A DNA stretch of 64,000 nt from Chromohalobacter moromii (GTDB lineage Bacteria; Pseudomonadota; Gammaproteobacteria; Pseudomonadales; Halomonadaceae): positions 310,001 through 374,000 of the forward strand of contig NZ_JAHXDI010000001.1 in the NCBI RefSeq assembly GCF_023091865.1, in the 5' to 3' direction. How positions within the stretch are numbered: the first letter of the stretch is position 1; the number at the start of each line of letters is the position of its first letter. Made by a program: the position numbers and the translations under genes. Positions 1,729 through 46,489 of this stretch are shown piece by piece. The notes below the pieces were generated by a model. That model searched no databases. It had not been told where the DNA came from and saw only the letters and a program-made list of their open reading frames with translations.

Positions 1729-2736
1729 ATGAACGTCGTCACATTACGTAGTCCGGGCGGGCTGGATAAGCTCGATATCCACGAATGCGAAGCGCCGGGT
1801 GAGCCGGGGCCTGGCGAGGTGCGCGTGCGCGTGCATGCCAGCTCGCTCAATTATCATGACTACGGTGTCGTTGCCGGCGCCATGTCGACCGAAGACGGCC
1901 GTATCCCTATGTCGGATGGGGCCGGTGTCGTCGAAGCCGTGGGTGAAGGCGTCGAGGAATTCACCGTGGGTGATCGGGTGGTATCGACGTTCTTTCCCGA
2001 GTGGCTCGAAGGGCCGGCACGCATCGGTGACTTCAGCACCACGCCCGGTGATGGCGTCGATGGCTATGCCCGTGAGCAGGTCGTGCGTCCGACGACGTGG
2101 TTTACTCACGCGCCGCGCAATTACGACCATGCCGAAGCCGCTACCCTGACCACGGCCGGGTTGACCGCTTGGCGCGCGCTGGTAGTGAATGGCAATCTCA
2201 AGGCGGGTGACACGGTGCTGGTGCTGGGCACCGGCGGTGTCTCGATCTTCGCCTTGCAGTTCGCCAAGCTGATGGGCGCCACGGTGATTGCGACCTCGTC
2301 CTCGGACGAGAAGATCGCACGGTTACGCGAACTAGGCGCCGATCACACGCTCAACTATAAGACCGAGCCGGAATGGGGCAAGCGCGTCAAGGCGCTCACC
2401 AACGGTCAGGGCGTCGATCATGTCATCGAAGTGGGTGGTCCCGCCACGCTGCCGCAATCCATCGACGCCGTGCGCATCGGCGGACACATCTCATTGATTG
2501 GCGTGCTCACCGGACGCGGCGGCGAAATTCCTACCGCCAAGCTGATGGCCAAGCAGGCGCGTCTGCAGGGCTTGATCGTGGGTAGTCGGCGCGATCAGAT
2601 CGAGATGATCCGCGCCATCGACGCTAGCGACCTACACCCGGTCATCGACCGCCGGTTCGCCCTCGACGAGATCGCCGACGCGTTTCGCCATCAGGAAGCA
2701 GGGCGCCACTTCGGCAAGATCTGCCTGGAATTCTGA
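1729..2736 (+). CDS. Zinc-independent MDR-family NAD(P)-dependent oxidoreductase
   Basis: This 335-residue medium-chain dehydrogenase/reductase has a GroES-like N-terminal half (EVRVRVHASSLNYHDYGVV) and a Rossmann half with GTGGVSIFALQFAKLMGA near residue 170. The position that holds the catalytic zinc cysteine in alcohol dehydrogenases reads SSLNYHD, and there is no four-cysteine structural zinc loop. It is therefore closer to quinone-oxidoreductase or enoyl-reductase-like MDRs than to true zinc alcohol dehydrogenases. The start at 1729 is chosen because AGGAG lies about 9 bases upstream and the N-terminus (MNVVTLRSPGG) is typical. It ends in front of a strong terminator. The substrate is unknown. 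Confidence 0.85.
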   Translation: MNVVTLRSPGGLDKLDIHECEAPGEPGPGEVRVRVHASSLNYHDYGVVAGAMSTEDGRIPMSDGAGVVEAVGEGVEEFTVGDRVVSTFFPEWLEGPARIGDFSTTPGDGVDGYAREQVVRPTTWFTHAPRNYDHAEAATLTTAGLTAWRALVVNGNLKAGDTVLVLGTGGVSIFALQFAKLMGATVIATSSSDEKIARLRELGADHTLNYKTEPEWGKRVKALTNGQGVDHVIEVGGPATLPQSIDAVRIGGHISLIGVLTGRGGEIPTAKLMAKQARLQGLIVGSRRDQIEMIRAIDASDLHPVIDRRFALDEIADAFRHQEAGRHFGKICLEF

Positions 2737-2756
2737 GTGCTAGTAAATGAGATGCT

Positions 2757-2790
2757 AAAATGCCGCCGGATAACTTCCGGCGGCATTTTT
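2757..2790. terminator. Bidirectional intrinsic terminator
   Basis: A perfect 10-bp GC-rich stem (2761-2770 with 2776-2785) has a 5-nt loop. It is flanked by AAAA on the left and a T-run on the right. It lies between the convergent MDR oxidoreductase and solute-binding protein genes, so it can end both transcripts. Confidence 0.9.
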
Positions 2791-3648
2791 TTATTTCCGC
2801 GAAGCGGGCCGCAGGTCGTAGTCGAAGTACTGTTCCATCAGCTCGATGAAAGTGCCGTCGGCGTAGACGCTGTCCAGCGCTTGATTGAAAGTGGCAGCCA
2901 GGTCCTTGTCGCGTGGTCGCACGGCGATGGCGTTACCCTTGCCGAAGATCGACTCAGGACTGTTGATGCGGGGCCCGACTTGGACAAAATCGCTGTTGGT
3001 GTCATCGACGTCCAACGTATCCAAAGCGACGGGATAGTTGATGAATGCCAAATCGAGGCGCTGTGACTGTAGGTCGAGTGCCACATCTGCTGCTGTGGCA
3101 TATCGCTGGATATCAAGAGTATCTGCGTAGCGCTCGGTGACATAGTTATCTTGTGTCGTCCCGCGTTGCACGCCAACGGATAAGCCTTTCAGTGTCTCCA
3201 TGTCGTCGATATCGATGTCGCTGCCACGTCGCGCCACCCACACTTTGGGTGACATGGCGTAGGGGGCGGTGAAGCGTACCTGCTTCTCGCGGGCGGGGGT
3301 GATGCGCATCGACGATAAAATGGCATCGTACTTGCGCGATAGCAGTCCGGGGATGATGCCATCCCAACCTTGTACCACCCATTCGCAGTCCAGCTTGGCG
3401 CGCTGACAGAGCGCGTTGCCCAAGTCGATCTCGAAGCCTGCGAGTTCGCCGTCGGCATTGCGATATTCGAACGGTGGATAAGGTACGTCGACGGCGATGC
3501 GTACGTGCTGTCTATCCTTGTTGGAAGTGTCGCTGGCCTGTGCGGAAAGGGTGCCGGTCAGGCTAGGGGCAACAAGCAGCACGGCGATGACCAGCTTGAA
3601 CGGTACGGCCACGGGTGGATGAAAGTCCAGCAAGCGGGAAGGTGACAT
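2791..3648 (-). CDS. Family-3 periplasmic amino-acid-type solute-binding protein (orphan)
   Basis: This 285-residue SBP_bac_3 protein has a hydrophobic export signal (residues about 15-38, ending LSAQA) and the family opening VRIAVDVPYPPFEYRNADGELAGFEIDLGNAL. Later come WDGIIPGLLSRKYDAILSSM and VGVQRGTT. Relatives bind basic or polar amino acids for ABC importers, yet no ABC permease or ATPase is adjacent. It follows tctA after 57 bp that contain a strong hairpin, and has its own AAGGAATT ribosome-binding site, so it looks like the last gene of the GGT-CHR-Tct unit. Ligand unknown; a glutamate- or gamma-glutamyl-type ligand is speculation from context. Confidence 0.85.
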   Translation of the reverse strand: MSPSRLLDFHPPVAVPFKLVIAVLLVAPSLTGTLSAQASDTSNKDRQHVRIAVDVPYPPFEYRNADGELAGFEIDLGNALCQRAKLDCEWVVQGWDGIIPGLLSRKYDAILSSMRITPAREKQVRFTAPYAMSPKVWVARRGSDIDIDDMETLKGLSVGVQRGTTQDNYVTERYADTLDIQRYATAADVALDLQSQRLDLAFINYPVALDTLDVDDTNSDFVQVGPRINSPESIFGKGNAIAVRPRDKDLAATFNQALDSVYADGTFIELMEQYFDYDLRPASRK

Positions 3649-3685
3649 GGGCTAATTCCTTGTTGTCATCGATGAGGTTTCGAAG

Positions 3686-3703
3686 CGGCCCCCGAGGGGG
3701 CCG
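3686..3703 (-). other. Intercistronic GC hairpin
   Basis: On the transcribed strand this reads as a 7-bp stem CGGCCCC/GGGGCCG with loop CTCG, immediately after the tctA stop. It has no following T-run. It may stabilise the upstream mRNA or attenuate transcription so that the binding-protein gene is expressed at a different level. Confidence 0.55.
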
Positions 3704-3705
3704 GG

Positions 3706-5208
3706 TCAGGCAGGTTTCGCGGCGTGGCGCTGGCGCAGCCGATGACGAATTGCCAAGGCCACTGACACCACGGCAAGGATCAATAGCGTCAGGGAGATCG
3801 GCCGGGTGAAAAACAGTGTCCAGTTCTCGTCGGTCATCAGTGCGCGGCGCAGGTTGGTTTCGGCAATCGGACCGAGGATGACGCCGAGCACTAACGGGGC
3901 CAGAGGGTAGTCCAGCTTACTGAGAATATAGCCGAAGACTCCCACCCCTAGCAGCAGGTAGATATCAGTGACGCGGTTGTTGAGGGCGAATGCGCCGACG
4001 ACACAGCACACCAGAACCACTGGGACGATAACCGAACGCGGAACGTCGGTAACACGCAGGAAGAAACGCATGCTGAACAGGCACACTACCAGCACCATGA
4101 ACGCGGCGAGCAGCATGGCCATGAACATGCCATAGACCAGATCGCCGTGATCGAGAATTAGTCGCGGGCCGATGCCGATGCCGTGAACCATCAGCGAGGC
4201 CATCAGTACGGCGTCGACGGCGCTGCCAGGAATACCGAGTGCGATCATCGGAATCAACCCGCCGCCGGAGGTCGCCGAGTTGCCGGATTCCGAAGCGATC
4301 ACACCCTCGGGCGTGCCGGTGCCAAACTTCTCTGGTGTTTTGGAAGCACGCTTGGCCTGGTCGTAAGCCAGCAAGTTGGCGATGCTGCCGCCAGCGCCGG
4401 GAACCGCGCCGATGAACACCCCGACCAGCGACGAACGGATCAAGTTGACCGGGTAGGTCAGCGTTTCGCGCAGCGCATCCAGTGGCTTGAAGGCTACGTT
4501 GGTAGGAATCAACTGCTTGCCGTGCTTGGTCTGTTCGGCGTCCTCGACTTCCTGGAGCAACTGGCTGACGGCGAAAATGCCGATCAGCACCACCAGGAAA
4601 GGGAAGCCGTTGGCGAGCAGGTCAAAGTCGAAGGTGAAGCGCGCCACGCCCATCATCGGGTCGGCGCCCACGGTGGCGATGAAAAGTCCCAACAGGCCGG
4701 TCATCAGCCCCTTGAGCATCGATTTTCCGACCAGGCTGGCGACCACCGTCATGGCGAAGATGATCAGCGAGAAATACTCCCAGGCACCTAGCTTGACGGC
4801 GATCATTGCTAACGGCGGAGCGGCGATGATCAGCACGATTGCGCTGACCAGGGCGCCGAAGAACGATGACCAGATCCCCAGCGCCAGGGCGCGACCTGGC
4901 TGGCCGCTGCGCGCCATGGGGAAGGCGTCGAAGGTGGTGGCCACCGACGATGGCGTGCCGGGGATACCCAACAGGGCGGCGCTGATCAGCCCGCCCGAAT
5001 AGCCGCCGACATAGACAGCGAGCATGGTCGCCACGCCCTGCAGAGGGGCCATGGTGAAGGTCAGCGGTAGGGTCAGCACGATGGCCATGGTGATAGTGAA
5101 GCCGGGGATCGCCGAGGCGATGACGCCAGCGACCACGCCGAGCAGCATGGTGGCCATGGTCGGCAGCGTGAACAACTGATCCATGCCGGCGAACAGCGCT
5201 TCCGTCAT
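3706..5208 (-). CDS. tctA: Tripartite tricarboxylate transporter, large membrane subunit TctA
   Basis: This 500-residue polytopic protein has the TctA hallmarks: GVVAGVIASAIPGFTITMA near residue 25, a second glycine/proline-rich repeat GAVPGAGGSIANLLAYDQAKRAS, then GVIASESGNSATSGGGLIPM and LGIPGSAVDAVLM. It forms the large channel subunit of a TTT-family secondary importer, which works with TctB and the periplasmic TctC. The tctB stop lies 42 bp upstream, and AAGGAG precedes the start. Family substrates include citrate, other carboxylates, glutamate and aromatic acids. The substrate here is unknown, although co-location with a gamma-glutamyltransferase hints at a glutamyl or carboxylate compound. 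Confidence 0.93.
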   Translation of the reverse strand: MTEALFAGMDQLFTLPTMATMLLGVVAGVIASAIPGFTITMAIVLTLPLTFTMAPLQGVATMLAVYVGGYSGGLISAALLGIPGTPSSVATTFDAFPMARSGQPGRALALGIWSSFFGALVSAIVLIIAAPPLAMIAVKLGAWEYFSLIIFAMTVVASLVGKSMLKGLMTGLLGLFIATVGADPMMGVARFTFDFDLLANGFPFLVVLIGIFAVSQLLQEVEDAEQTKHGKQLIPTNVAFKPLDALRETLTYPVNLIRSSLVGVFIGAVPGAGGSIANLLAYDQAKRASKTPEKFGTGTPEGVIASESGNSATSGGGLIPMIALGIPGSAVDAVLMASLMVHGIGIGPRLILDHGDLVYGMFMAMLLAAFMVLVVCLFSMRFFLRVTDVPRSVIVPVVLVCCVVGAFALNNRVTDIYLLLGVGVFGYILSKLDYPLAPLVLGVILGPIAETNLRRALMTDENWTLFFTRPISLTLLILAVVSVALAIRHRLRQRHAAKPA

Positions 5209-5250
5209 ATTGTGTCTCCTTTCGAAGGCAGCCGCGAAGCCGTGGTGTGT

Positions 5251-5796
5251 TCAGCCGAAGGGGCCGCGCGGAAGGCTGATGATGAAGACATCTCGGAACA
5301 GCCAGTCGATGCCGAACGAGAACGTCACGGCGATGATTGCGGCGATGGCCAGGCTACGGGGGCGACGCACACCAAGCGTGAGCTGGACCAGGGTTAGGAA
5401 AAGCAGCGAGGCCAGGCGAAAGCCCAGCATCGGCACGCCGACGATGTACAGGGCGAACAGCGCCAACACGCCGAGCGCCAGTCGGTGCTGCCACAGCCAG
5501 CGCGTGACAAGCCCCGCTGAGGCGCGCGGCGCACCGCGATAGCGTCGCCACTCCTGGGCCATGATGCCTAGGTTGATCACCATCAGGACGGCCAGTACCA
5601 GACGCGGAAAGCTGCCCGAACCGAGGGGTTCCCACATCGACGCGGGCAACGCCCCGGCTTGGACGAACAGCGCGCCGAACAGCACCACCAGCGCGCCGTT
5701 CAGCAGCAAATGGGCGAGCGCATTGGCGCGCCGGGTATCGGGGGCGGCGGCCCGATCTGACGATCGGGTCTGCTGCGAAGAAGACTGCGAACTCAT
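5251..5796 (-). CDS. tctB: Tripartite tricarboxylate transporter, small membrane subunit TctB
   Basis: This 181-residue protein has about four membrane segments (near residues 29-45, 65-80, 106-122 and 126-160) and ends in a short FGIDWLFRDVFIISLPRGPFG tail, typical of TctB. It is the small integral subunit of the TTT transporter. Its ATG overlaps the tctC stop by 4 bp (ATGA), indicating translational coupling. The first 25 residues are hydrophilic and Ser/Gln-rich. Confidence 0.9.
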   Translation of the reverse strand: MSSQSSSQQTRSSDRAAAPDTRRANALAHLLLNGALVVLFGALFVQAGALPASMWEPLGSGSFPRLVLAVLMVINLGIMAQEWRRYRGAPRASAGLVTRWLWQHRLALGVLALFALYIVGVPMLGFRLASLLFLTLVQLTLGVRRPRSLAIAAIIAVTFSFGIDWLFRDVFIISLPRGPFG

Positions 5797-6812
5797 TTGG
5801 CTAGCTTCCCGGATAGCCGTTCGATGGTCTCGTCGGTGGTCTTGAGGTAGTCAGCGAATGTCTCAGGACCTTCGAAATGTACTTGGGCGCCGGCGTTATG
5901 TACCGCCTGGATGAACTGCTCATCCTCGGAGAGTTCCCGCATGGCATCGGCGAGTACTTTGATCTTATCCTCTGGAGTACCCTTGGGAGCGATCAGGCCG
6001 CGCACGATGTTGAGGCTGAGCGAGTCGTAGCCGAGTTCCTTGAAGGTCGGCACGTCTGGTGTCTCTTCCTGACGCTCAGCGCTGCCCACCGCCAGGAAAC
6101 GCAGATCGCCATTCTTGACGAACTCGCCACTCGAGGCGATATCACCAATCGCAGCGTCGATATGCCCGCCAACAAGCGCACGAATGCGAGCACCGGTGCC
6201 CTCGAAACCGACATAGCGGAACGATAGATTCGCAGCATCTTCCATCATCGCCGCGTGGACATGGGGAATCCCGCCAAGCGTCACGCCGACACGGATCTCG
6301 CCGGGATTGTCCTGGGCGTAGTCGACGAATTCGTCGAAGGTCTGCCATGGGCTATCGGCGTTGACCGTCAGATATTGTGGTGAGGCGGTCATGGCCGCGA
6401 CCGGGGTGAAGTCGTCCCAGTTGAGTTGGGTCATTTGGGTATGGTTGGCGACTAGTAGCCCCTCGTGGATCTGGCCTACCGTGTAGCCGTCGGGGTCGCG
6501 CTTGGAAAGCTCTTTGAGGCCAGTGGTGCCGCTGACGCCGGGCATGTTGATGACCGGCATGGGCTGACCTAGGTACTCTTCGACATTATTGGAGATCACT
6601 CGCATCAAGGTGTCGCTGCCACCGCCCGGTGACCATGGAACGATGAATTCTACCGGCTTGTTGGGATAGTCCCCGGATTGGGCCAGTGATGCGGTGCTAG
6701 CACCTAATGCTGTACCCAGCACTAGCCCCCCGATAATTAGCTTGAAACGGAGGGAGCGGGTTGCTTGGGGCCGACCTTGGATAGTGTTGCTCTGCTGAGA
6801 AGTAAATGACAT
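5793..6812 (-). CDS. tctC: Tripartite tricarboxylate transporter, periplasmic binding protein TctC
   Basis: This 339-residue Bug/TctC-family receptor has an export signal at residues 20-45 (FKLIIGGLVLGTALGASTASLAQS). The mature start YPNKPVEFIVPWSPGGGSDTLMR is the classic TctC beginning. Further motifs are INMPGVSGTTGLKELSKRDPDGYTVG and LRFLAVGSAERQ. I chose the ATG at 6812 rather than 6845 because AAGGA lies 10 bases before it. It captures the substrate for TctA/TctB. The gene starts 120 bp after the second CHR gene, a gap containing small inverted repeats, so it may also have its own promoter or processing site. Confidence 0.92.
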   Translation of the reverse strand: MSFTSQQSNTIQGRPQATRSLRFKLIIGGLVLGTALGASTASLAQSGDYPNKPVEFIVPWSPGGGSDTLMRVISNNVEEYLGQPMPVINMPGVSGTTGLKELSKRDPDGYTVGQIHEGLLVANHTQMTQLNWDDFTPVAAMTASPQYLTVNADSPWQTFDEFVDYAQDNPGEIRVGVTLGGIPHVHAAMMEDAANLSFRYVGFEGTGARIRALVGGHIDAAIGDIASSGEFVKNGDLRFLAVGSAERQEETPDVPTFKELGYDSLSLNIVRGLIAPKGTPEDKIKVLADAMRELSEDEQFIQAVHNAGAQVHFEGPETFADYLKTTDETIERLSGKLAK

Positions 6813-6932
6813 GGCTATATTGTCCTTGTTGGTCATTGTATTCATGCATTGCTTGATTACCGGCTCGTAAGAGCCTTATGGGATTCGCGCGGTATATCGC
6901 CGAATCCGCGAACGGGCAGATCCCGACGACCA

Positions 6933-7463
6933 CTAACCGAGCAGCAGGGCGCCGTAGACGAGTCCGAAACACACGACGAACGCCGGGTGAACCCGGGTCG
7001 CCAGGAGTGATACGCCGGCCACGCCACCGATGATCGCGGTGTGCACGGCGCCGGCGGTCGTCACACTTTCGGTGAGAAATCTCCAGGTTAGATAGGCCAT
7101 GAGCGTCATCACCACTGGGCGGACCCACTGGCTCATCGACTTGACCTTGATCGAGTCGCGGTAGCGATACAGCGTGCCCAGCGCGATTAGCATCAGCAGC
7201 AGCGACGGCGCGACGGTGGCGAAGGTGGCGATCAGCGATCCGGGCACGCCGGCGACGTCGTAGCCGATGTAGCCGGCCATCTTGGTAGCGATCGGGCTGG
7301 GCAGCGCGTTGCCTAGCGCCAAGGTCTCGGCGAAAGCCTGTGAACTCATCCACCCATAGCGGCCGACCACCTCGTTCTCGATCAGCGGGATGATCGCCGG
7401 GCCGCCGCCGTAACCGACGATGTTGGGGATGAAGAACGCCAGGAACAGGTGCCAATAGATCAT
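6933..7463 (-). CDS. CHR-family (chromate transporter-like) half-size subunit 2
   Basis: This 176-residue hydrophobic protein has the CHR domain signature near its N-terminus (GYGGGPAIIPLIENEVV), then LALGNALPSPIATKMAGYIGY, followed by several membrane segments. It is a short-chain CHR protein; such proteins normally act as an adjacent pair of opposite topology. It overlaps the partner gene by 4 bp (ATGA). The family is named after chromate efflux, but many members have other or unknown anions as substrates, and no chrB/chrR-like gene is nearby. Together with the adjacent GGT this recalls B. subtilis ywrA/ywrB/ywrD. Confidence 0.88.
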   Translation of the reverse strand: MIYWHLFLAFFIPNIVGYGGGPAIIPLIENEVVGRYGWMSSQAFAETLALGNALPSPIATKMAGYIGYDVAGVPGSLIATFATVAPSLLLMLIALGTLYRYRDSIKVKSMSQWVRPVVMTLMAYLTWRFLTESVTTAGAVHTAIIGGVAGVSLLATRVHPAFVVCFGLVYGALLLG

Positions 7464-8032
7464 TTGTTCGTCTCGCTGGTCGCTTGCTGCGATTCGGGGC
7501 GCAGTAACGCTGCGATCAAGATCGCGCCGATGACCAGCCCCGGGTGCACATCGAGCCAGTAGATCAGCCCACCGGCGATGGCCCCCATCACCAGCGTCAC
7601 AAGCCAGCCAAGGCTGGCCCGCGACTTGGTGAAAAAATCCCAGGTCAACTTGGCCATCATCACCATGACGACGGGGACCACGCCCTGGCCCATGCCCTGC
7701 ACCCAGCGCTGGTCGCCGTGACGGGCGTAGAGTCCGAGTAGCGCGATCATTGCAATGATTATTGGCCCGATTACCGCGATGACGGCATTGAGCGCGCCCA
7801 GACTGCCTCCGACTCGGTAACCGATGTAGCCGGCCATCTTGGTGGCGATTGGGCCGGGCAGTGTATTGCCGATTGCCAGCACGTCGGCGAATGCCTCGTC
7901 GTCCATCCAGGCGTGGCGTTTGACTACTTCTTGATGAACGAGAGGGATCATCGACGGGCCGCCACCGAAGCCGAACAGGCCGATGCGCAGGAAGGCCATG
8001 AATAGCTGGGCTTGAGTACGCAGCATGATCAC
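7460..8032 (-). CDS. CHR-family (chromate transporter-like) half-size subunit 1
   Basis: This 190-residue paralogue of the downstream protein has the signature FLRIGLFGFGGGPSMIPLVHQEVV, then LAIGNTLPGPIATKMAGYIGY. It is the first member of a short-chain CHR pair. The start is GTG at 8032, overlapping the GGT stop by 4 bp, or ATG at 8026; neither has a strong ribosome-binding site, which fits translational coupling to the GGT gene. Substrate is unknown. Confidence 0.88.
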   Translation of the reverse strand: MIMLRTQAQLFMAFLRIGLFGFGGGPSMIPLVHQEVVKRHAWMDDEAFADVLAIGNTLPGPIATKMAGYIGYRVGGSLGALNAVIAVIGPIIIAMIALLGLYARHGDQRWVQGMGQGVVPVVMVMMAKLTWDFFTKSRASLGWLVTLVMGAIAGGLIYWLDVHPGLVIGAILIAALLRPESQQATSETNK

Positions 8033-9663
8033 AGTACCGCGATGCTGGCGTCGGTGCGCGGCTCGGTGCCGCCGCAGTAGATGCCGCTGTCTGGGTCGCG
8101 GATGATCATCTGCCCGCGGCCGAAGCCGCGTGGATCGTGGTCGATCTGCATGTCGTGACCGCGCTCAGCCATGGCTCGTATGAGTGGGGCCGGGTAGTCG
8201 TGCTCGATGCCGATGCGCTTGCCACCCATCCACTGCCAGCGTGGTGCGTCCAACGCGGCTTGAGGGTTGAGGCCGAAGTCGATCAGGTTCATCACTACCT
8301 GGACGTGTCCCTGGGGCTGCATGAAACCGCCCATCACGCCGAATGGCCCGAGTGGCGTGCCGTCGTCGCGGGTCAAAAAGCCGGGAATGATGGTATGGAA
8401 GGTCTTCTTGCCCGGGGCGAGAACGTTGTCGTGGCTCGGGTCGAGACTGAAATTGTGGCCGCGGTTTTGCAGTGCGATGCCGGTGCCGGGCACCACTACA
8501 CCGGAGCCGAAGCCGTGATAATTGCTCTGTATGAACGACACCATATTGCCGTCGCTGTCGGCGGTCGCCAGGTAGACGGTGCCGCCGGCCTGCGGGGTGC
8601 CTGGGGTCGGCTCGAGCGCCGATTCGCCGATCAGCGCGCGGCGCTCTCGCGTATAGGCGTCGCCGAGTAGCGCCTCGACGCTATGTGTCATGGACTCGGG
8701 TTGGGTGATATAGGCCTGCCCGTCGCTGAATGCCAGTTTCATCGCCTCGAGCTGGCGGTGCAGTACCTCGGGATTGTCGCGGCTGTCGATCTCGAAGCCC
8801 TCGAGCATGCGCAGCGCCATCAGCGCGACCAGCCCCTGGCCGTTGGGCGGAATCTCCCATACTTGATGACCACGGTAGTCTGCCGCGATCGGCTTGACCC
8901 ATTCCGGCTGATAACCGGCAAGATCTTCTGCACGCAGATAGCCACCGGTCTCGCGGGAGAAGGCGTCGATGCGCTCGGCCAGCTCGCCGCGATAAAAACT
9001 CTCGCTGTGGCTTGCGGCGATGGCTTCCAGGGTCTGCGCCTGGTCCTCGCAGCGGTGCCACTCGCCGGCGCGCGGGGCATGCCCGGTCGGCGCGAAGGTC
9101 TCGAACCAGCCTGCGGTAGCGGTATCCGTTAGATGTTGGCGGAAGGTCATCTCGGCGCGTTGCCACAGGCTGGCGATGACCGGTGAGACCGGAAAACCCT
9201 CTCGGGCCAGGCGGGTCGCTGGGGCGAGTAGCGTCTGAAAATCGAGCTTTCCGAAGCGCCGCGATAGTTCGGCCCATGCGGCGGGAATGCCGGGCACGGT
9301 CACCGGCGTCCAGCCGTAAAGCGGCATGGACTCGAAGCCGGCCTCGGCGACAGCCTGCGGAGTCAATGCGGCGGGGGCGGTGCCGCTGGCATTGAGACCG
9401 TGAAGTTCTCCGTTGCCTGCATTGTCGTCGGCTATCCAGACCAGCGCGAAAGCGTCACCGCCGATCCCGCAACCGGTGGGTTCGACCACGGTCAGCGCCG
9501 CCGCGGTGGCGATGGCGGCGTCCACTGCGTTGCCGCCCTGCGCGAGGATGTCACGGCCAACCTGGCTGGCCTGGGGCTGGGACGCGGCGACCATGCCGTG
9601 TTTGGCGTAGGTGGCGCTGCGTTGGGAAGCGTAGGGCGTCGCCTGGGAAAAGGGCGTCAACAT
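8029..9663 (-). CDS. Gamma-glutamyltransferase-family protein, cytosolic (YwrD-like)
   Basis: This 544-residue Ntn-hydrolase of the GGT family should self-cleave before a threonine; the best candidate is Thr362 in GGTVYLATADSDGN, aligned with the TTHYSVVD region of E. coli Ggt. Other landmarks are AVDAAIATAAALTVVEPTGCGIGGDAF near residue 48, SNYHGFGSGVVVP and GGFMQPQGHVQVVMNL. No signal peptide is visible, whereas classical Ggt is periplasmic. It is therefore expected to act in the cytosol on imported gamma-glutamyl compounds, or as an acylase. GGAG precedes the ATG. It is the first gene of the minus-strand unit with the CHR pair and TctCBA. Confidence 0.9.
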   Translation of the reverse strand: MLTPFSQATPYASQRSATYAKHGMVAASQPQASQVGRDILAQGGNAVDAAIATAAALTVVEPTGCGIGGDAFALVWIADDNAGNGELHGLNASGTAPAALTPQAVAEAGFESMPLYGWTPVTVPGIPAAWAELSRRFGKLDFQTLLAPATRLAREGFPVSPVIASLWQRAEMTFRQHLTDTATAGWFETFAPTGHAPRAGEWHRCEDQAQTLEAIAASHSESFYRGELAERIDAFSRETGGYLRAEDLAGYQPEWVKPIAADYRGHQVWEIPPNGQGLVALMALRMLEGFEIDSRDNPEVLHRQLEAMKLAFSDGQAYITQPESMTHSVEALLGDAYTRERRALIGESALEPTPGTPQAGGTVYLATADSDGNMVSFIQSNYHGFGSGVVVPGTGIALQNRGHNFSLDPSHDNVLAPGKKTFHTIIPGFLTRDDGTPLGPFGVMGGFMQPQGHVQVVMNLIDFGLNPQAALDAPRWQWMGGKRIGIEHDYPAPLIRAMAERGHDMQIDHDPRGFGRGQMIIRDPDSGIYCGGTEPRTDASIAVL

Positions 9664-9707
9664 GCCGTCTCCGATCGATTGTTGTGTTATAAATCGTTTT
9701 GAATAAA

Positions 9708-9719
9708 AAAATCGATTTT
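9708..9719. promoter_or_regulatory. Candidate operator, perfect palindrome
   Basis: AAAATCGATTTT is a 12-bp perfect palindrome just downstream of the predicted GGT transcription start. Related half-sites occur at 9674-9680 (ATCGATT) and 9691-9696 (AAATCG). The neighbouring divergent GntR/FCD protein is the obvious candidate binder. This is inferred from position and symmetry only. Confidence 0.5.
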
Positions 9720-9728
9720 ATTGAGATG

Positions 9729-9757
9729 ACTATGGCGCGCGATTTGATTAACGTCAA
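9729..9757 (-). promoter_or_regulatory. Candidate sigma-70 promoter of the GGT operon
   Basis: On the minus strand, TTGACG (9752-9757) and CATAGT (9729-9734) are separated by 17 bp. The transcript would start near 9722 and run through the palindrome at 9708-9719, a classic place for repressor control. Confidence 0.5.
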
Positions 9758-9863
9758 TATAGGATTTAGCAAAGCGTCCCCTGGACAGAGGCAAAACCTG
9801 TTTGCCGAGTCGGAAATACTCTTCGCCGGCCATCACCTTTGAACTTGATAAGAGAATCACGCC

Positions 9864-10547
9864 ATGACCGCATCGCCATCCGCCAGTAGCGACATGGCTT
9901 CGAGCCGCATCTTCGAGACACTCAAGCAGGACTTGATTCGCGGACGTTTCGCGGCGGGTGAGAAGCTCGCCATCAGCGCCCTCAAGGACCATTACCGAGT
10001 GGGGCTCAGCCCGCTGCGTGAGGCTCTCAACCGGCTGGCGGCTTATGGCCTGCTCGAGCAGGTCAACCAGCGGGGGTTTCGAGTCCCAGCAATGGAGCTT
10101 GAGGAGCTAGATGACATCGCAGGGCTACGCGCTCAGCTTGAATGCATGGCGTTGACGCAGGCTTTTCAGGCGGGAGATTCAGAATGGGAGTCCCAGGTAT
10201 TGGCGGCGCATCATCGGTTGCGCCGTGCCGACGAGCATCCTGAGCAAGTGGAGGAATGGGAGCAAGCACATCTGCGCTTTCATAGGGCGTTGCTAGCGTC
10301 GTGCGGTTCGCACTGGTTGTTACGCTTCATCGAACAATTACACGACCAGTTCGACCGCTACCGGCGCCTGGCGCCGCCCAATCCGGCGGTGCGAAAGGCG
10401 CTTGATCGCCAACATGGCGAGCTGGTCGAACTGGCACTGAGTCGAGACATTCGCGCCGCGCGGGCATTGCTCGATGATCACATCCGGCTGTCTCACAGTG
10501 TTGCCCGCGGTTGTTGCGAGTCACCGGCATCCGACGACGATACGTGA
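9864..10547 (+). CDS. GntR-family transcriptional regulator, FCD subfamily
   Basis: This 227-residue protein has an N-terminal winged helix (about residues 14-75: IFETLKQDLIRGRFAAGEKL, then SPLREALNRLAAYGLLEQVNQRGFRV). A C-terminal FCD ligand domain follows, with likely metal-binding residues in HLRFHRALLASCGS and DRQHGELVELAL plus a late DDHIRLS. Such regulators bind small carboxylates or metabolites and usually repress a neighbouring operon. It is divergent from the GGT-CHR-Tct unit across 200 bp with a palindrome at the predicted promoter, so it is the likely local regulator. The effector is unknown. Confidence 0.9.
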   Translation: MTASPSASSDMASSRIFETLKQDLIRGRFAAGEKLAISALKDHYRVGLSPLREALNRLAAYGLLEQVNQRGFRVPAMELEELDDIAGLRAQLECMALTQAFQAGDSEWESQVLAAHHRLRRADEHPEQVEEWEQAHLRFHRALLASCGSHWLLRFIEQLHDQFDRYRRLAPPNPAVRKALDRQHGELVELALSRDIRAARALLDDHIRLSHSVARGCCESPASDDDT

Positions 10548-10588
10548 GCCGTTGGCGCCGTAGCACCACGACTCACGATTGACGTGAC

Positions 10589-11944
10589 TTATGCCCCGCC
10601 TTGGGTGCCGTTACCGCGACCTCGTCCGCCACGACGGCGGCGCGGGCGGTTTTCGCCGCCATTGCGATCGCGGGATGCATTGCTGTTGCGTGAGTCGTTA
10701 CCGCCTGAGTTGCCACCGCGACGTTGGCCGTTGTCGCGTCCGTTACCGTTGCGCTGGCCTCCACCGTTGCCACCGCGCGGCGGGCTGGTGCCCTGGCCGC
10801 TGACGAGTGCTTCGCTGGGTTCGAAGCCGGCGATGGTTTGGCGTTCCAGCGTCTGGCGGGTCAGTCGCTCGATGCCCGCGAGTTCCTTGCCTTCTTCGGG
10901 GCTGACCAGCGACACCGCGTGGCCGCTAGCACCGGCACGTCCGGTACGTCCGATACGGTGGACGTAGTCCTCGGCGACATTGGGTAGCTCGAAGTTGACC
11001 ACTTGCGGGAGCTGATCGATGTCGAGGCCGCGCGCGGCGATATCGGTGGCCACCAGTACACGAATATCGCCGCTCTTGAAGCCGTCGAGGGCCTTGGTGC
11101 GCGCATTCTGGCTCTTGTTGCCGTGAATCGCAGCCGCCTCGATACCGGCGTCTTCGAGCTGGCGACTCAGGCGGTTAGCGCCATGCTTGGTACGCATGAA
11201 GACCAGCACCTGCTGCCACTGATTCTCGTGGATCAGGTGCGTGAGCAGTGCCGGCTTGCGGGTCTTGTCCACCGGGTGGATCCACTGCGTGACCGTCTCG
11301 GCGGTCGTGTTGCGCGGCGTGACCGAGATTTCTACCGGATCGTTGACCATGCCCTTGGCGAGCGTGCGGATCTCCTGCGAGAAAGTCGCCGAGAACATCA
11401 GGTTCTGACGCTTGGCGGGCAGTGCTTTGAGGATCCGACGGATATCGTGGATGAAGCCCATGTCGAGCATGCGGTCGGCTTCGTCCATCACCAGTACTTC
11501 CAGCGCATCGAAACTGACGGCCTTCTGGCTATACAGATCCAGCAGTCGACCCGGCGTTGCCACCAGGATATCGACCCCGCCGCGTAGCTTGGCGATCTGC
11601 GGGTTGACCTTCACGCCGCCGAAGACCACGGCGCTGCGCAGCGGCAGATGCTTGCCGTATGCCTCGATATTGGCGCCGATCTGGGCGGCCAGCTCGCGGG
11701 TCGGCGTGAGAATCAGCGCGCGCACTTGCTTGGCGGGCGCGCGCGTGCCGGTAGACAGGCGCTCGAGGATCGGCAGCGTGAAACCGGCGGTCTTGCCGGT
11801 GCCGGTCTGCGCGGCGGCCATGACGTCGCGTCCGTCGAGAACGGCGGGGATCGCCTTGGCTTGAATCGGTGAGGGTGTCTCGTAGCCTTGCTCGGCCACG
11901 GCATCCAGAATCGGAGCGGAAAGCCCCAAGGAGGTAAAGCTCAT
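10589..11944 (-). CDS. rhlE: DEAD-box ATP-dependent RNA helicase, RhlE-like
   Basis: This 451-residue helicase has the motifs in order: Q motif (GYETPSPIQ), motif I AQTGTGKT at about residue 47, [19 protein letters not shown] (DEAD box), SATFS, and [12 protein letters not shown]. The C-terminal 85 residues are a low-complexity tail rich in Gly, Asn and Arg that ends in [16 protein letters not shown], as in RhlE proteins, where it helps RNA binding. It acts in RNA remodelling and ribosome assembly or decay. It stands alone, convergent with the GntR gene (41 bp gap). The N-terminus MSFTSLGL is a typical RhlE start. Confidence 0.93.
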
Positions 11945-13018: not shown

Positions 13019-15055
13019 TCAGATGGCCGTGCGTGGAATCTCGCGCTGCCATGACTTCTCGCTGACCAGTGTCTCGCCCTCGTGGGCGATTTGCTCGGCG
13101 CTGAGGTAGAAGGTGTCTGTGTCGCAATGCAGGTGATAGCGACTGGTCACCTCGACGGCGAACTGACCGTCGCCTTCATCGCGGCTGGCACGATAGACCC
13201 ATTCGATATCGGCACGTGTCCGTGTGGCGTCGGTCGGGTGACTGCTGTAGACCTCTTTTGCTTTTTGCTCGACACGTAAGCCGTGATCCTCGAAGCGAAT
13301 GTCGCCCATGTCGTCTTCCACGGTTACGGTTACCTCGCCACTGCCGACGTCTTCGCTGAGAGTGCGCTTGGGTTGTCCACCGCGAAGCGTTTCGACGCGA
13401 CACGGCGCGGCGCTCTCCGGTGCTTCGAATGGCATCGAGATGTAAGCCGCTTTTGAACATGGCAGCTCGAGTGTCGGCATGCCCGACTGAAGCGTCAGGT
13501 CAGCGCGCTTTTGGGGCGACCACACAAGCGGAAAACTGGCGCTGGAGAGCGCCACGCGCAGGCGGTGTCCCGGGGGGAGGCGATAGCCGATCAGATCCAG
13601 CGGTACGCGAACGTCCATCGGCTCGCCCGGTACCGGTGGCGTAATCGTGCCCGGGTCATCGCGTAGATTGAGATTGAGTGTGCCGTAGGTGATCAGCGCG
13701 CTCTCGCCGCTGGGGGCCACGTCGCACAAGCGCACGTGCAGTTGGCCGCACGCTGCGGTGCTGGTGACCGACACCGCAAGTCTCGGTTGGCCGAGAATGT
13801 CGAGCCCCTCGAGGTACGGGGCGGAATCGAAGGTCAGCGACAGGCCATCGTCACGACGCTGGTCCGGCGGAAAGTCGGCGCCGAACCACAGTGGAATGTA
13901 TTCGCCCTGCAGCGCGCCGGCGGTCAATGGCGAGGCGATCTGCCGATCGTTGCTCAAGCGGCCGTTGGCCGCCAATCCCTGGTCGCCGAGCACCAGGGAT
14001 TGCGTCTCGACCTCGTCACTGGGCGCGGGCCAGCCGTGGGTACGGACCCACTTCCCCGGGCGCTCGAGGTACTTCGGCGCGGGCGGCACGCCATCCTGCA
14101 GATAGAAGGTGCACGCGGGCTCGTCCATGATGCCGGTGTCGGTATCCTTGAGCCAGTAGTCCCACCAGCGCAGCGCCTCCTGCAGAAAGCCGATGGCCGG
14201 GTCGGGGATCGCAAAGTGCGGGTACTTGTGCATCCACGGCCCGATCAGCGCCTTCTTGGGGCACGACAGGTGCTCCATCATTCGCGGAATGGCGTCGATG
14301 TACGAATCCGCCCAGCCGCTGACCATATAGACAGCCGCTTCGATGCCGCCTAGCGCTTGGTGATAGCCCTCGCAGATCGAACCATGTTTCCAGTAGTCGT
14401 CACGATGCTGATGCTCGAGCCAGGTGTCCGCCAGCAGCGGCATGTTGTCGAGGCGATGCTTCCACATCTCGCGCCATCGATCGCCGACCAGCGCCGGGTC
14501 GGGCACGGCGGCGGAGAAGCTCAGCATGGTCGCCGCCCAGCCGAGGTTCTCCAGCAGCATGTTGCCGCCCTTGTAGTGGATGTCATCGGCGTAGCGGTCG
14601 TCGGTGGAGCACAGCGTGATGATCGCCTTGAGCGGTTCGGGACGCAGCGCGGCGAGTTGCAGGCTGTTGAAGCCGCCCCAGGAGATGCCCATCATTCCGA
14701 GCTTGCCGTCGCACCAGGGCTGGCCGGCGATCCAGTCGATCACCTCCAGCGCATCACGCTGTTCCTGGGGAGCATACTCGTCCTCCATCAGCCCATCGGA
14801 CTCGCCATTGCCGCGCATATCGACCCGGATGCAGGCGTAACCGTGGCCGGCGAACCAGGGGTGGGTCAGCTCGTCGCGCACCGCCGTGCCGTCGCGTTTG
14901 CGATAGGGCAGGTATTCGAGGATCGCCGGCACTGGCTTCGACTCGGCATCCTCGGGCAACCAGATACGGGCCGCTAGCCGCGTGCCATCGGCGAGCACGA
15001 TCCATTGGTTCTCGATCTCGCGCACGCGGTGTGGAAAGTCGTGCTTGATGTTCAT
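13019..15055 (-). CDS. CocE/NonD-family alpha/beta hydrolase
   Basis: This protein of about 678 residues has an X-Pro dipeptidyl-peptidase-type catalytic domain followed by a C-terminal jelly-roll domain. The early segment reads TRLAARIWLPEDAESKPVPAILEYLPYRKRDG, followed by RVDMRGNGESDG. The nucleophile serine is in GISWGG. Relatives include cocaine esterase, amide hydrolases and glutaryl-7-ACA acylases. The start at 15055 overlaps the BCCT stop by 4 bp (ATGA) and has AAGGA in front, so it is translationally coupled to the transporter. No signal peptide is seen, so it should act in the cytosol on something imported. A choline- or betaine-type ester is a plausible but untested substrate. Confidence 0.88.
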   Translation of the reverse strand: MNIKHDFPHRVREIENQWIVLADGTRLAARIWLPEDAESKPVPAILEYLPYRKRDGTAVRDELTHPWFAGHGYACIRVDMRGNGESDGLMEDEYAPQEQRDALEVIDWIAGQPWCDGKLGMMGISWGGFNSLQLAALRPEPLKAIITLCSTDDRYADDIHYKGGNMLLENLGWAATMLSFSAAVPDPALVGDRWREMWKHRLDNMPLLADTWLEHQHRDDYWKHGSICEGYHQALGGIEAAVYMVSGWADSYIDAIPRMMEHLSCPKKALIGPWMHKYPHFAIPDPAIGFLQEALRWWDYWLKDTDTGIMDEPACTFYLQDGVPPAPKYLERPGKWVRTHGWPAPSDEVETQSLVLGDQGLAANGRLSNDRQIASPLTAGALQGEYIPLWFGADFPPDQRRDDGLSLTFDSAPYLEGLDILGQPRLAVSVTSTAACGQLHVRLCDVAPSGESALITYGTLNLNLRDDPGTITPPVPGEPMDVRVPLDLIGYRLPPGHRLRVALSSASFPLVWSPQKRADLTLQSGMPTLELPCSKAAYISMPFEAPESAAPCRVETLRGGQPKRTLSEDVGSGEVTVTVEDDMGDIRFEDHGLRVEQKAKEVYSSHPTDATRTRADIEWVYRASRDEGDGQFAVEVTSRYHLHCDTDTFYLSAEQIAHEGETLVSEKSWQREIPRTAI

Positions 15056-46175: not shown

Positions 46176-46250
46176 GGGTCGTTAGCTCAGTGGTAGAGCA
46201 GTTGGCTTTTAACCAATTGGTCGTAGGTTCGAATCCTACACGACCCACCA
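46176..46250 (+). tRNA. tRNA-Lys (anticodon TTT), copy 1
   Basis: This 75-base gene has an encoded CCA end. The acceptor arms GGGTCGT/ACGACCC pair, the D-arm is TTAGCTCAGTGGTAGAGCA, the anticodon loop is CTTTTAA giving anticodon TTT, and the T-arm contains GGTTCGAATCC. Confidence 0.97.
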
Positions 46251-46305
46251 TTGTCCAGCGCCTCTGAATGGCGTGACGCAATGTACGTTTCGAAGACCCG
46301 GCGGC

Positions 46306-46380
46306 GGGTCGTTAGCTCAGTGGTAGAGCAGTTGGCTTTTAACCAATTGGTCGTAGGTTCGAATCCTACACGACCCACCA
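46306..46380 (+). tRNA. tRNA-Lys (anticodon TTT), copy 2
   Basis: Identical over all 75 bases to copy 1, including the CCA end. The 55-bp spacer before it is unrelated to the next spacer. No separate promoter is evident, so it is probably cut from one precursor. Confidence 0.97.
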
Positions 46381-46414
46381 TTGCCGCCGAAAACTGTCTG
46401 AATGGGCAGGTTAT

Positions 46415-46489
46415 GGGTCGTTAGCTCAGTGGTAGAGCAGTTGGCTTTTAACCAATTGGTCGTAGGTTCGAATCCTACACGACCCACCA
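46415..46489 (+). tRNA. tRNA-Lys (anticodon TTT), copy 3
   Basis: Identical to the other two copies and separated from copy 2 by 34 bp. It is followed within 7 bp by the terminator stem that closes the cluster. Confidence 0.97.

What the first reader, a model, noticed from the sequence alone, without database searches (positions are those of the whole stretch)
2791..10547. GGT - CHR pair - TctCBA - orphan binding protein unit: a possible undescribed uptake and gamma-glutamyl processing system
Seen: on one strand, GGT, two half-size CHR genes and tctC-tctB-tctA follow each other, with 4-bp overlaps at GGT/CHR1, CHR1/CHR2 and tctC/tctB. A family-3 binding protein follows and a GntR/FCD regulator is divergent. 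The GGT has no signal peptide, so it should act on imported substrate. Established, from memory: B. subtilis ywrA-ywrB (CHR pair) lies with ywrD (cytosolic GGT-like), with an Lrp-type regulator ywrC. Inference: CHR pairs and cytosolic GGT form a conserved partnership across phyla, here joined to a second importer. The true substrate may be a gamma-glutamyl or N-acyl carboxylate and need not be chromate.
Basis: partly seen in the sequence, partly recalled or inferred. Interest (0 to 1): 0.72.

Follow-up and report, generated by a model that had tools for sequence, protein, structure and literature searches.

The report
GGT-like amidase paired with CHR transporters
A salt-loving bacterium carries a single gene unit in which an amide-cutting enzyme, two small 'chromate' transporters and an importer sit together; the enzyme and the small transporters are found side by side far too often in distantly related bacteria to be chance, which suggests that these 'chromate pumps' may normally handle an organic acid made by the enzyme.

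Summary
The genes are real and at the stated places: a Chromohalobacter-like unit GGT-CHR-CHR-tctCBA-SBP3 with one promoter-like site, an inverted-repeat operator beside a divergent GntR/FCD gene, and a terminator-like stem after the last gene. The claimed GGT-CHR partnership is strong: in 200 Bacilli genomes, 50 of 100 CHR loci (from the 150 best listed hits) lie within 3 kb of a GGT-family gene, about 0.3 expected. It was gained or lost repeatedly, and CHR lineages were re-paired with different GGT clades. The importer is exchangeable: TctCBA, Opp-type ABC or none seen. The gamma-glutamyl part is weakened: canonical substrate-binding residues are replaced, while the genome's other GGT keeps them; the enzyme belongs with 2NLZ, YwrD and HpxW. 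Of 13 CHR-linked distant relatives fetched, 6 sit with urate/allantoin genes, where the known HpxW reaction makes oxalate. Best reading, inferred: imported amide is hydrolysed in the cytosol and the CHR pair exports the dianionic acid. Substrate and direction are untested. My library searches showed no paper on the pairing (mostly listings).

The parts
8029..9663 (-). GGT-family Ntn amidohydrolase, 544 aa, no signal peptide seen by eye; predicted nucleophile Thr362
   Evidence: PF01019 517.9 bits; nearest solved chain 2nlz; small subunit next nearest to 5hft_B; residues
7460..8032 (-). CHR1, short chromate-transporter-family protein, first of the pair
   Evidence: PF02417 151 bits
6933..7463 (-). 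CHR2, second of the pair; its PGP motif reads PSP
   Evidence: PF02417 135.4 bits; sequence
5793..6845 (-). TctC substrate-binding protein
   Evidence: PF03401
5251..5796 (-). TctB small membrane subunit
   Evidence: PF07331
3706..5208 (-). TctA large membrane subunit
   Evidence: PF01970
2791..3648 (-). Orphan family-3 solute-binding protein, 60% identical to one in an ABC operon elsewhere in this genome (L247)
   Evidence: PF00497
9864..10547 (+). Divergent GntR/FCD regulator; nearest NCBIfam model CsiR, 158.3 bits, below its cut-off 218
9691..9719 (.). Predicted operator: AAAATCGATTTT (9708-9719) plus half-site AAATCGTTTT (9691-9700)
   Evidence: only match in the window, 0.02 expected with one mismatch allowed; AATCGATT beside the regulator in 18 of 18 Halomonadaceae loci with this GntR, 21 loci examined
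9729..9757 (-). Promoter-like -35/-10 (TTGACG-17-CATAGT) reading into GGT
   Evidence: only promoter-like site in 2600-10700; 2.2 expected in shuffles, so the support is its place just upstream of the operator
2757..2789 (.). 14-pair terminator-like stem between the convergent SBP3 and ADH genes, predicted end of the unit
   Evidence: 6 terminator-like sites found, 5.0 expected; this one is the longest stem; listed on the + strand, the stem is an inverted repeat

Best explanation
Shown: a probable transcription unit coding for a GGT-family protein of the HpxW/YwrD/2NLZ type, a short CHR pair and an exchangeable importer (TctCBA here), with a conserved operator-like site beside a local GntR/FCD gene. 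Inferred: TctCBA brings in an amide of a small dicarboxylic acid (an oxamate- or glutaramate-like or N-acyl compound without an alpha-amino group). The cytosolic hydrolase splits it to an amine or ammonia plus the dicarboxylate, the cell uses the nitrogen, and the CHR1-CHR2 pair exports the surplus dianion. Chromate would then be an accidental substrate.
For: Adjacency far above chance. 21 changes of the CHR label on a 121-row GGT tree, at least 10 forced by starred branches. CHR lineages re-paired with different GGT clades: L224/L225 and L110/L215 are crossed. Canonical gamma-Glu contacts replaced, catalytic Thr and first oxyanion Gly kept in 123 of 123 clade-A rows; the genome's other GGT, L002, keeps the canonical set. 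D433N gives E. coli GGT acylase activity (PMC8062742, passages). Best solved relatives of the small subunit are 2nlz, 5hft (HpxW by recall) and 2i3o. 6 of 13 clade-B (under 43% identity) CHR-linked loci carry urate/allantoin-degradation genes; the CHR pair of L152 among them passes NCBIfam's 'chromate efflux ChrA/ChrB' cut-offs. CHR genes without GGT stand by other amidohydrolases in six Pfam-checked loci. Efflux direction from YwrBA genetics. C. beijerinckii keeps GGT-CHR-CHR but shows no tctCBA-SBP3 in its locus.
Against: No substrate or direction measured. The purine link fails in 7 of 13 clade-B loci (L153-L156, L223, L226; L225 has only a weak PucR-like match), and L152 and L228 are 98% identical. 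In the named loci of the window's own clade an allantoinase-type match appears in 1 of 80 (L062), and the genome has no allantoinase over the cut-off, so the oxamate analogy is indirect. GtGGT, which shares the Ser and His-Thr residues, is reported to have GGT hydrolytic activity (PMC8062742, passages). Among Pseudomonadota loci fetched by GGT similarity only 2 of 40 have a CHR within 8 kb. In the Bacillota-wide sample the link is rarer than in Bacilli. CHR pairs could be importers.
Confidence: 0.4

Rival explanations
1. A glutathione or gamma-glutamyl-peptide (or gamma-glutamyl-amine) salvage system: importer, cytosolic gamma-glutamyl hydrolase, and a CHR pair exporting excess sulfur oxyanion or other product.
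For: The two Opp binding proteins tested from Bacillota operons score best with GsiB, below its cut-off (242.1 and 284.7 against 594). GtGGT, with the same residue pattern, is described as having GGT hydrolytic activity. In L114 the GGT is followed by a class-III aminotransferase and a glutamine-synthetase-like ligase.
Against: Alpha-carboxylate Arg and alpha-amino Asp not kept, whereas the genome's other GGT keeps them; TIGR00066 cut-off not met; a 2004 paper by Minami and others says in its title that GGT, but not YwrD, matters for use of extracellular glutathione in B. subtilis (title seen in a reference list); 6 of 13 clade-B CHR-linked loci have urate/allantoin genes.
Confidence: 0.21
2. 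The CHR pair is a second importer of the same amide rather than an exporter; TctCBA and Opp are alternatives to it.
For: Many loci have GGT-CHR-CHR with no Tct or Opp found nearby: 26 of the 63 CHR-linked named loci; ywrDCBA in L223 has none.
Against: YwrBA loss sensitises B. subtilis to chromate, which fits efflux; CHR and a Tct or Opp importer occur together in 37 of 80 named loci (17 Tct, 20 Opp).
Confidence: 0.2
3. A chromate-resistance unit in which the GGT-like enzyme supplies thiol precursors or glutamate, with tct unrelated.
For: CHR family name; a ChrS-type Lrp regulator beside a CHR pair (L176, which has no GGT).
Against: Window CHRs fail the curated chromate-efflux cut-offs (193.8 and 169.2 against 250); a GntR-linked operator-like site heads the unit; purine and amidohydrolase contexts.
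Confidence: 0.1
4. Chance neighbours or one old inherited block without functional link.
For: Within Halomonadaceae the block is inherited largely as a whole.
Against: 50 of 100 CHR loci by GGT, 0.27 expected; repeated gain or loss and re-pairing; order changes with CHR before or after GGT, or separated by tct in L119.
Confidence: 0.03

Closest known systems
B. subtilis ywrDCBA (YwrD GGT-like; ChrS; short CHR pair Chr3N/Chr3C)
   Same: GGT-family protein without signal peptide next to a short CHR pair; same arrangement seen in L223
   Different: Window GGT is about 36% identical to L223's; GntR/FCD instead of Lrp/ChrS; TctCBA and SBP3 added; window CHRs below the ChrA/ChrB cut-offs, L223's over them
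Oxamate amidohydrolase HpxW (PDB 5hft by recall)
   Same: Small-subunit pattern QNRG..FSLD, FHT, MGG..QPQ
   Different: Substrate of the window enzyme unknown; no purine-gene match in the four Chromohalobacter loci; D433 position Asn, Ala in 5hft
2NLZ, deposited as cephalosporin acylase (BhGGT in PMC8062742)
   Same: 746.7 bits over nearly the whole length
   Different: No physiological role known to me; its gene context was not examined here
E. coli GsiABCD glutathione importer with IaaA (recalled)
   Same: Importer plus cytosolic Thr-type Ntn hydrolase as one unit, as in the Bacillota Opp-GGT operons
   Different: No CHR pair (recalled); SBPs below the GsiB cut-off; the window uses TctCBA

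Membership tests
Canonical gamma-glutamyltranspeptidase | PF01019 domain and N-terminal-nucleophile Thr | tested here: met
   Thr in 123 of 123 clade-A rows
Canonical gamma-glutamyltranspeptidase | Arg (EcGGT R114) and Asp (D433) that bind the gamma-glutamyl alpha-carboxylate and alpha-amino groups; Ser-Ser 462/463 | tested here: not met
   Window Ser, Asn and His-Thr; clade A: Ser 121/123, Asp 8/123, His 121/123, Thr 123/123; control L002 in the same genome: Arg, Asp, Ser-Ser
Canonical gamma-glutamyltranspeptidase | NCBIfam TIGR00066 curated cut-off | tested here: not met
   331.1 against 357.85; relatives L223, L224 and L230 pass it, so the model is not specific for canonical residues
HpxW/YwrD/2NLZ-type GGT-like amidohydrolase | Ser/Tyr/Arg/His-Thr pocket pattern, no signal peptide | tested here: met
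   absence of signal peptide by eye only
HpxW oxamate amidohydrolase | Hydrolysis of oxamate | not testable with these tools
   needs assay
HpxW oxamate amidohydrolase | Purine/allantoin-degradation gene context | tested here: not met
   no match in the Chromohalobacter loci L032, L033, L057, L070; an allantoinase match in 1 of 80 named loci (L062); met for 6 of 13 clade-B CHR-linked loci
Short CHR (Chr3N/Chr3C) pair | Two adjacent single-domain PF02417 genes | tested here: met
Chromate efflux ChrA/ChrB equivalogs | NCBIfam NF053760 / NF053759 cut-off 250 | tested here: not met
   193.8 and 169.2
Tripartite tricarboxylate transporter | TctC, TctB and TctA all present and contiguous | tested here: met
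   PF03401, PF07331, PF01970
Lysine/arginine/ornithine ABC importer | SBP with its permease and ATPase | tested here: inconclusive
   SBP3 alone here, TIGR01096 225.8 below 256.35; a 60% paralogue lies by two permease-like and one ATPase-like gene in L247 (those names by eye)

The most novel reading that the evidence does not exclude
Short CHR transporter pairs, known as chromate efflux pumps, are natively exporters of small organic dianions (oxalate- or dicarboxylate-like) that work with cytosolic amidohydrolases, above all HpxW/YwrD/2NLZ-type GGT relatives; the importer is a swappable part (TctCBA, Opp-type or amino-acid-type ABC). Chromate efflux by YwrBA is a side activity.
Probability: 0.33. 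Interest if true: 0.76.

Novelty: new variant of a known kind. Interest (0 to 1): 0.62.

Why it matters
Why organisms keep chromate pumps with no chromate around has no settled answer that I know of. A physical and evolutionary tie between CHR pairs and one type of amidohydrolase makes the question directly testable in B. subtilis (ywrD, ywrBA) and in Chromohalobacter. It also gives a concrete lead on the YwrD and 2NLZ enzymes (for YwrD, the review PMC8062742 says that no role has been assigned; passages), and argues against annotating such genes as glutathione metabolism or metal resistance.

Tried and rejected
Chance adjacency: rejected. Purine degradation as the setting of the window gene itself: rejected for this genome (no allantoinase over the cut-off; best 234 bits against 357.85) and for its named clade (1 of 80 loci), though it holds for some relatives. 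CHR motif as a separator of GGT-linked from other CHRs: no clear difference (41 of 191 GGT-linked and 3 of 31 other CHR hits lacked a PGP match). Literature: 0 papers hold chromate transporter, GGT and operon together; of the two papers one names the two genes in separate tables (PMC8745256, passages) and the other was not opened; PMC10991351 lists ywrC, ywrB and ywrA as chromate genes without glutamyl (passages); of the 4 papers one (PMC9605947) was not opened; of the 11 papers two were opened in passages (PMC8062742, PMC4568574); one search gave two papers, not opened; one search listed 12 of 176, none of the 12 with chromate transporter; one search gave one. Hicks and Ealick on HpxW is not held, so the HpxW activity rests on its citation in PMC5270733 (passages). 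No structure prediction was run, because 2NLZ is a close solved relative. The amidohydrolase neighbours of CHR genes without GGT were picked by eye among 19 loci (L172-L190) and six were run through Pfam, so that trend is weak. Random expectation assumes uniform placement in 3.9-Mb genomes; the CHR list was cut at its 150 best hits; genomes are related, so the counts are not of independent events. In the CHR tree the L112 rows, identical to L003, were labelled 'noGGT' by the script although L112 has a GGT.
Full report
Observation. GGT/CHR1, CHR1/CHR2 and TctC/TctB overlap by 4 bp; 87 nt separate CHR2 from tctC. The only promoter-like site in 2600-10700 reads into GGT (9757-9729, minus strand; shuffles give 2.2 on average, so the site counts only through its position). 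A 14-pair terminator-like stem follows the last gene, SBP3 (2757-2789; 6 terminator-like sites were found and 5.0 expected, this being the longest stem; none was listed in the 87-nt gap). The organism is Chromohalobacter-like: nearest named loci are C. canadensis and C. beijerinckii at 96-97% GGT identity.

Regulation, not in the first report. Downstream of the promoter-like site lies AAAATCGATTTT with a half-site (9691-9719), the only copy in 64 kb. AATCGATT lies beside the regulator in 18 of 18 Halomonadaceae loci that carry this GntR, of 21 loci examined; the 3 without it are L045 and L046 (no such GntR found) and L047 (a more distant GntR and a different palindrome) (start codons of the GntR and antiporter genes in L036 and L037 were placed by eye). 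In L119 the gene order is GntR | CHR CHR tctC tctB tctA GGT and the site sits in front of CHR1, not GGT (tctB by eye). In L035-L037 an antiporter-like gene (NhaC family by Pfam in L035) stands first, between regulator and GGT, and the site is again next to the regulator. This supports one regulated unit; binding itself is not shown.

The partnership. The named-genome scan was made with the GGT alone (592 candidates, best 80 kept). 63 of its 80 loci have a CHR gene within 3 kb, 17 of them also with Tct and 20 with an Opp-type ABC transporter nearby. 17 of 80 show no CHR; several of these contigs end near the gene. In an even sample of 200 Bacilli genomes, 50 of 142 GGT hits (41 of 102 at 53% identity or more, 9 of 35 at 35-44%, 0 of 5 below 35%) lie within 3 kb of a CHR locus, and 50 of the 100 CHR loci from the 150 best listed hits lie by a GGT; uniform placement predicts 0.27. 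In the 249-genome Bacillota sample the association looks rarer: of the 19 GGT loci I fetched, chosen partly because a CHR was near, 6 have one within 3 kb. In Pseudomonadota I saw it in Halomonadaceae and one Oceanospirillaceae MAG (L047): 2 of 40 loci fetched from the 299-genome sample have a CHR within 8 kb (L112, L119), while 15 of 40 have Tct genes beside the GGT (the CHR list was cut). So Tct-GGT and CHR-GGT are two separate recurring links, joined in Halomonadaceae. C. beijerinckii (L033) shows no tctCBA-SBP3 in its 21.6-kb locus but keeps GGT-CHR-CHR, and Virgibacillus litoralis (L085) has tctCBA-GGT-CHR-CHR with an Lrp-like gene. SBP3 after TctA occurs in 4 of the 80 named loci (L032, L037, L057, L070).

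History. On a tree of 121 GGT rows the CHR label needs 21 changes, at least 10 forced by starred branches; shuffled labels need about 28, so the label is also clustered (35 rows with short flanks not counted; quick method, some long rows meet). On a tree of 110 CHR rows, the pairs of GGT-clade-B loci L224 and L225 fall inside the lineage used by clade A, window included (97 starred for the second gene), while the pairs of clade-A loci L110 and L215 fall inside the ywrAB lineage (99 and 100 starred); a Brevibacillus-type set forms a third lineage. GGT relatives and CHR pairs have therefore been put together more than once.

What the enzyme is. The nearest solved chain is 2nlz, deposited as cephalosporin acylase (746.7 bits); canonical GGTs are far behind. 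For the small subunit the next nearest are 5hft, which I recall to be HpxW, and 2i3o. Mapped through B. subtilis GGT, the window has Tyr for Glu423, Arg for Glu442, Asn for Asp445 and His-Thr for Ser-Ser. In the alignment of 181 GGT rows the column of the canonical Arg holds Ser in the window; the genome's second GGT, L002, serves as a built-in control and has Arg, Asp and Ser-Ser in these columns. A review states that D433N gives E. coli GGT cephalosporin acylase activity, that the E423Y/E442Q/D445N mutant of B. subtilis GGT has 963-fold acylase activity, and that extremophile GGTs carry Ser and His-Thr at these places (PMC8062742, passages). The Asn is not strict: 84 of 123 in clade A, the rest Gly, Asp, Glu, Thr or Ser; Gly in 18 of 28 of the 43-53% group and Phe in 20 of 30 of the rows under 43%. 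Against this, the same review describes GtGGT, with the same pattern, as having GGT hydrolytic activity. Another paper's reference list carries the title of Minami and others 2004, that GGT but not YwrD is important for use of extracellular glutathione in B. subtilis (PMC4568574, passage).

Context of relatives. Of 13 fetched clade-B loci (under 43% identity) with a CHR within 3 kb, 6 carry urate/allantoin genes (L152, L222, L224, L227, L228, L229; L152 and L228 are 98% identical), L225 has only a weak PucR-like match, and L153-L156, L223 and L226 have none; L153-L156 stand by Opp-type transporters. L224 has amidase, GGT, CHR, CHR, an FAD enzyme, HIU hydrolase, OHCU decarboxylase and a PucR-like gene (amidase, HIUase and OHCU by Pfam); L222 has an allantoinase over the TIGR03178 cut-off. 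L161, L163 and L230-L232 have the GGT in purine clusters without CHR. The CHR pair of L152 passes the curated 'chromate efflux' ChrA and ChrB cut-offs (281.7 and 305.6 against 250). Danchin notes that YwrD resembles HpxW and co-evolves with purine catabolism (PMC5270733, passages). CHR genes without GGT stand by an amidase (L173), asparaginase II (L179, L182), creatininase plus TctCBA (L189) and M20 hydrolases (L181, L186); by eye about 7 of 19 such loci, a weak count.

Mechanism. An importer brings in an amide; the GGT-like enzyme hydrolyses it in the cytosol; the anionic product leaves through the CHR pair. The shared property of oxalate and chromate is a small divalent oxyanion. Efflux direction rests on the chromate sensitivity of a B. 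subtilis strain lacking ywrBA (PMC8940164, passages). The chemistry of the window's substrate is open: its clade is hardly ever in purine clusters, and the genome has no allantoinase over the cut-off. The FCD regulator is nearest to CsiR, below that model's cut-off, which by recall senses glutarate; this is only a hint. The orphan SBP3 is 60% identical to one in an amino-acid-type ABC operon that also holds an AstE/AspA-type deacylase (L247) and may feed that complex.

Verdict. The unit and the GGT-CHR partnership are well supported, the exchangeable importer likewise; the gamma-glutamyl idea is weakened; export of a dicarboxylate-like product is my best guess at about 0.40.

Noticed in passing
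L189:3159-7507: TctC-TctB-TctA-creatininase-CHR in a row in a Bacillota genome (TctB by eye): a second amidohydrolase joined to TctCBA and a CHR gene.
   Followed up: partly
L179:5868-7621 and L182:6890-8624: Asparaginase II gene directly beside a short CHR gene.
   Followed up: partly
L035:8457-9932, L036, L037: NhaC-type Na+/H+ antiporter gene inserted between GntR and GGT as first gene of the unit (Pfam run on L035 only).
   Followed up: partly
L033:12201-13745: C. beijerinckii shows no tctCBA and SBP3; the CHR2 gene is followed at once by the ADH gene.
   Followed up: partly
L052:7008-7676 and 13031-13948: Two related genes, the first confirmed as DUF1028, in and after the Opp-GGT-CHR operon of a Bacillota MAG.
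   Followed up: no
L114:944-8605: Pseudomonadota GGT followed by two SDR-like genes, a class-III aminotransferase and a glutamine-synthetase-like ligase, with an amino-acid-type ABC transporter upstream.
   Followed up: partly
L226:3769-10398: Divergent GGT with a CHR pair near a Rieske oxygenase gene of LigXa type, with no purine-gene match.
   Followed up: no
window 46176-46489: Three tRNA-Lys(ttt) genes in tandem.
   Followed up: no
L247:4642-12280: Amino-acid-type ABC operon with two family-3 SBPs and an AstE/AspA-type deacylase in the window's genome; possible host of the orphan SBP3.
   Followed up: partly
L002 (own genome, contig C4:81518-83113): A second, canonical-residue GGT in the same genome (Arg, Asp, Ser-Ser kept), used here as control.
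   Followed up: partly
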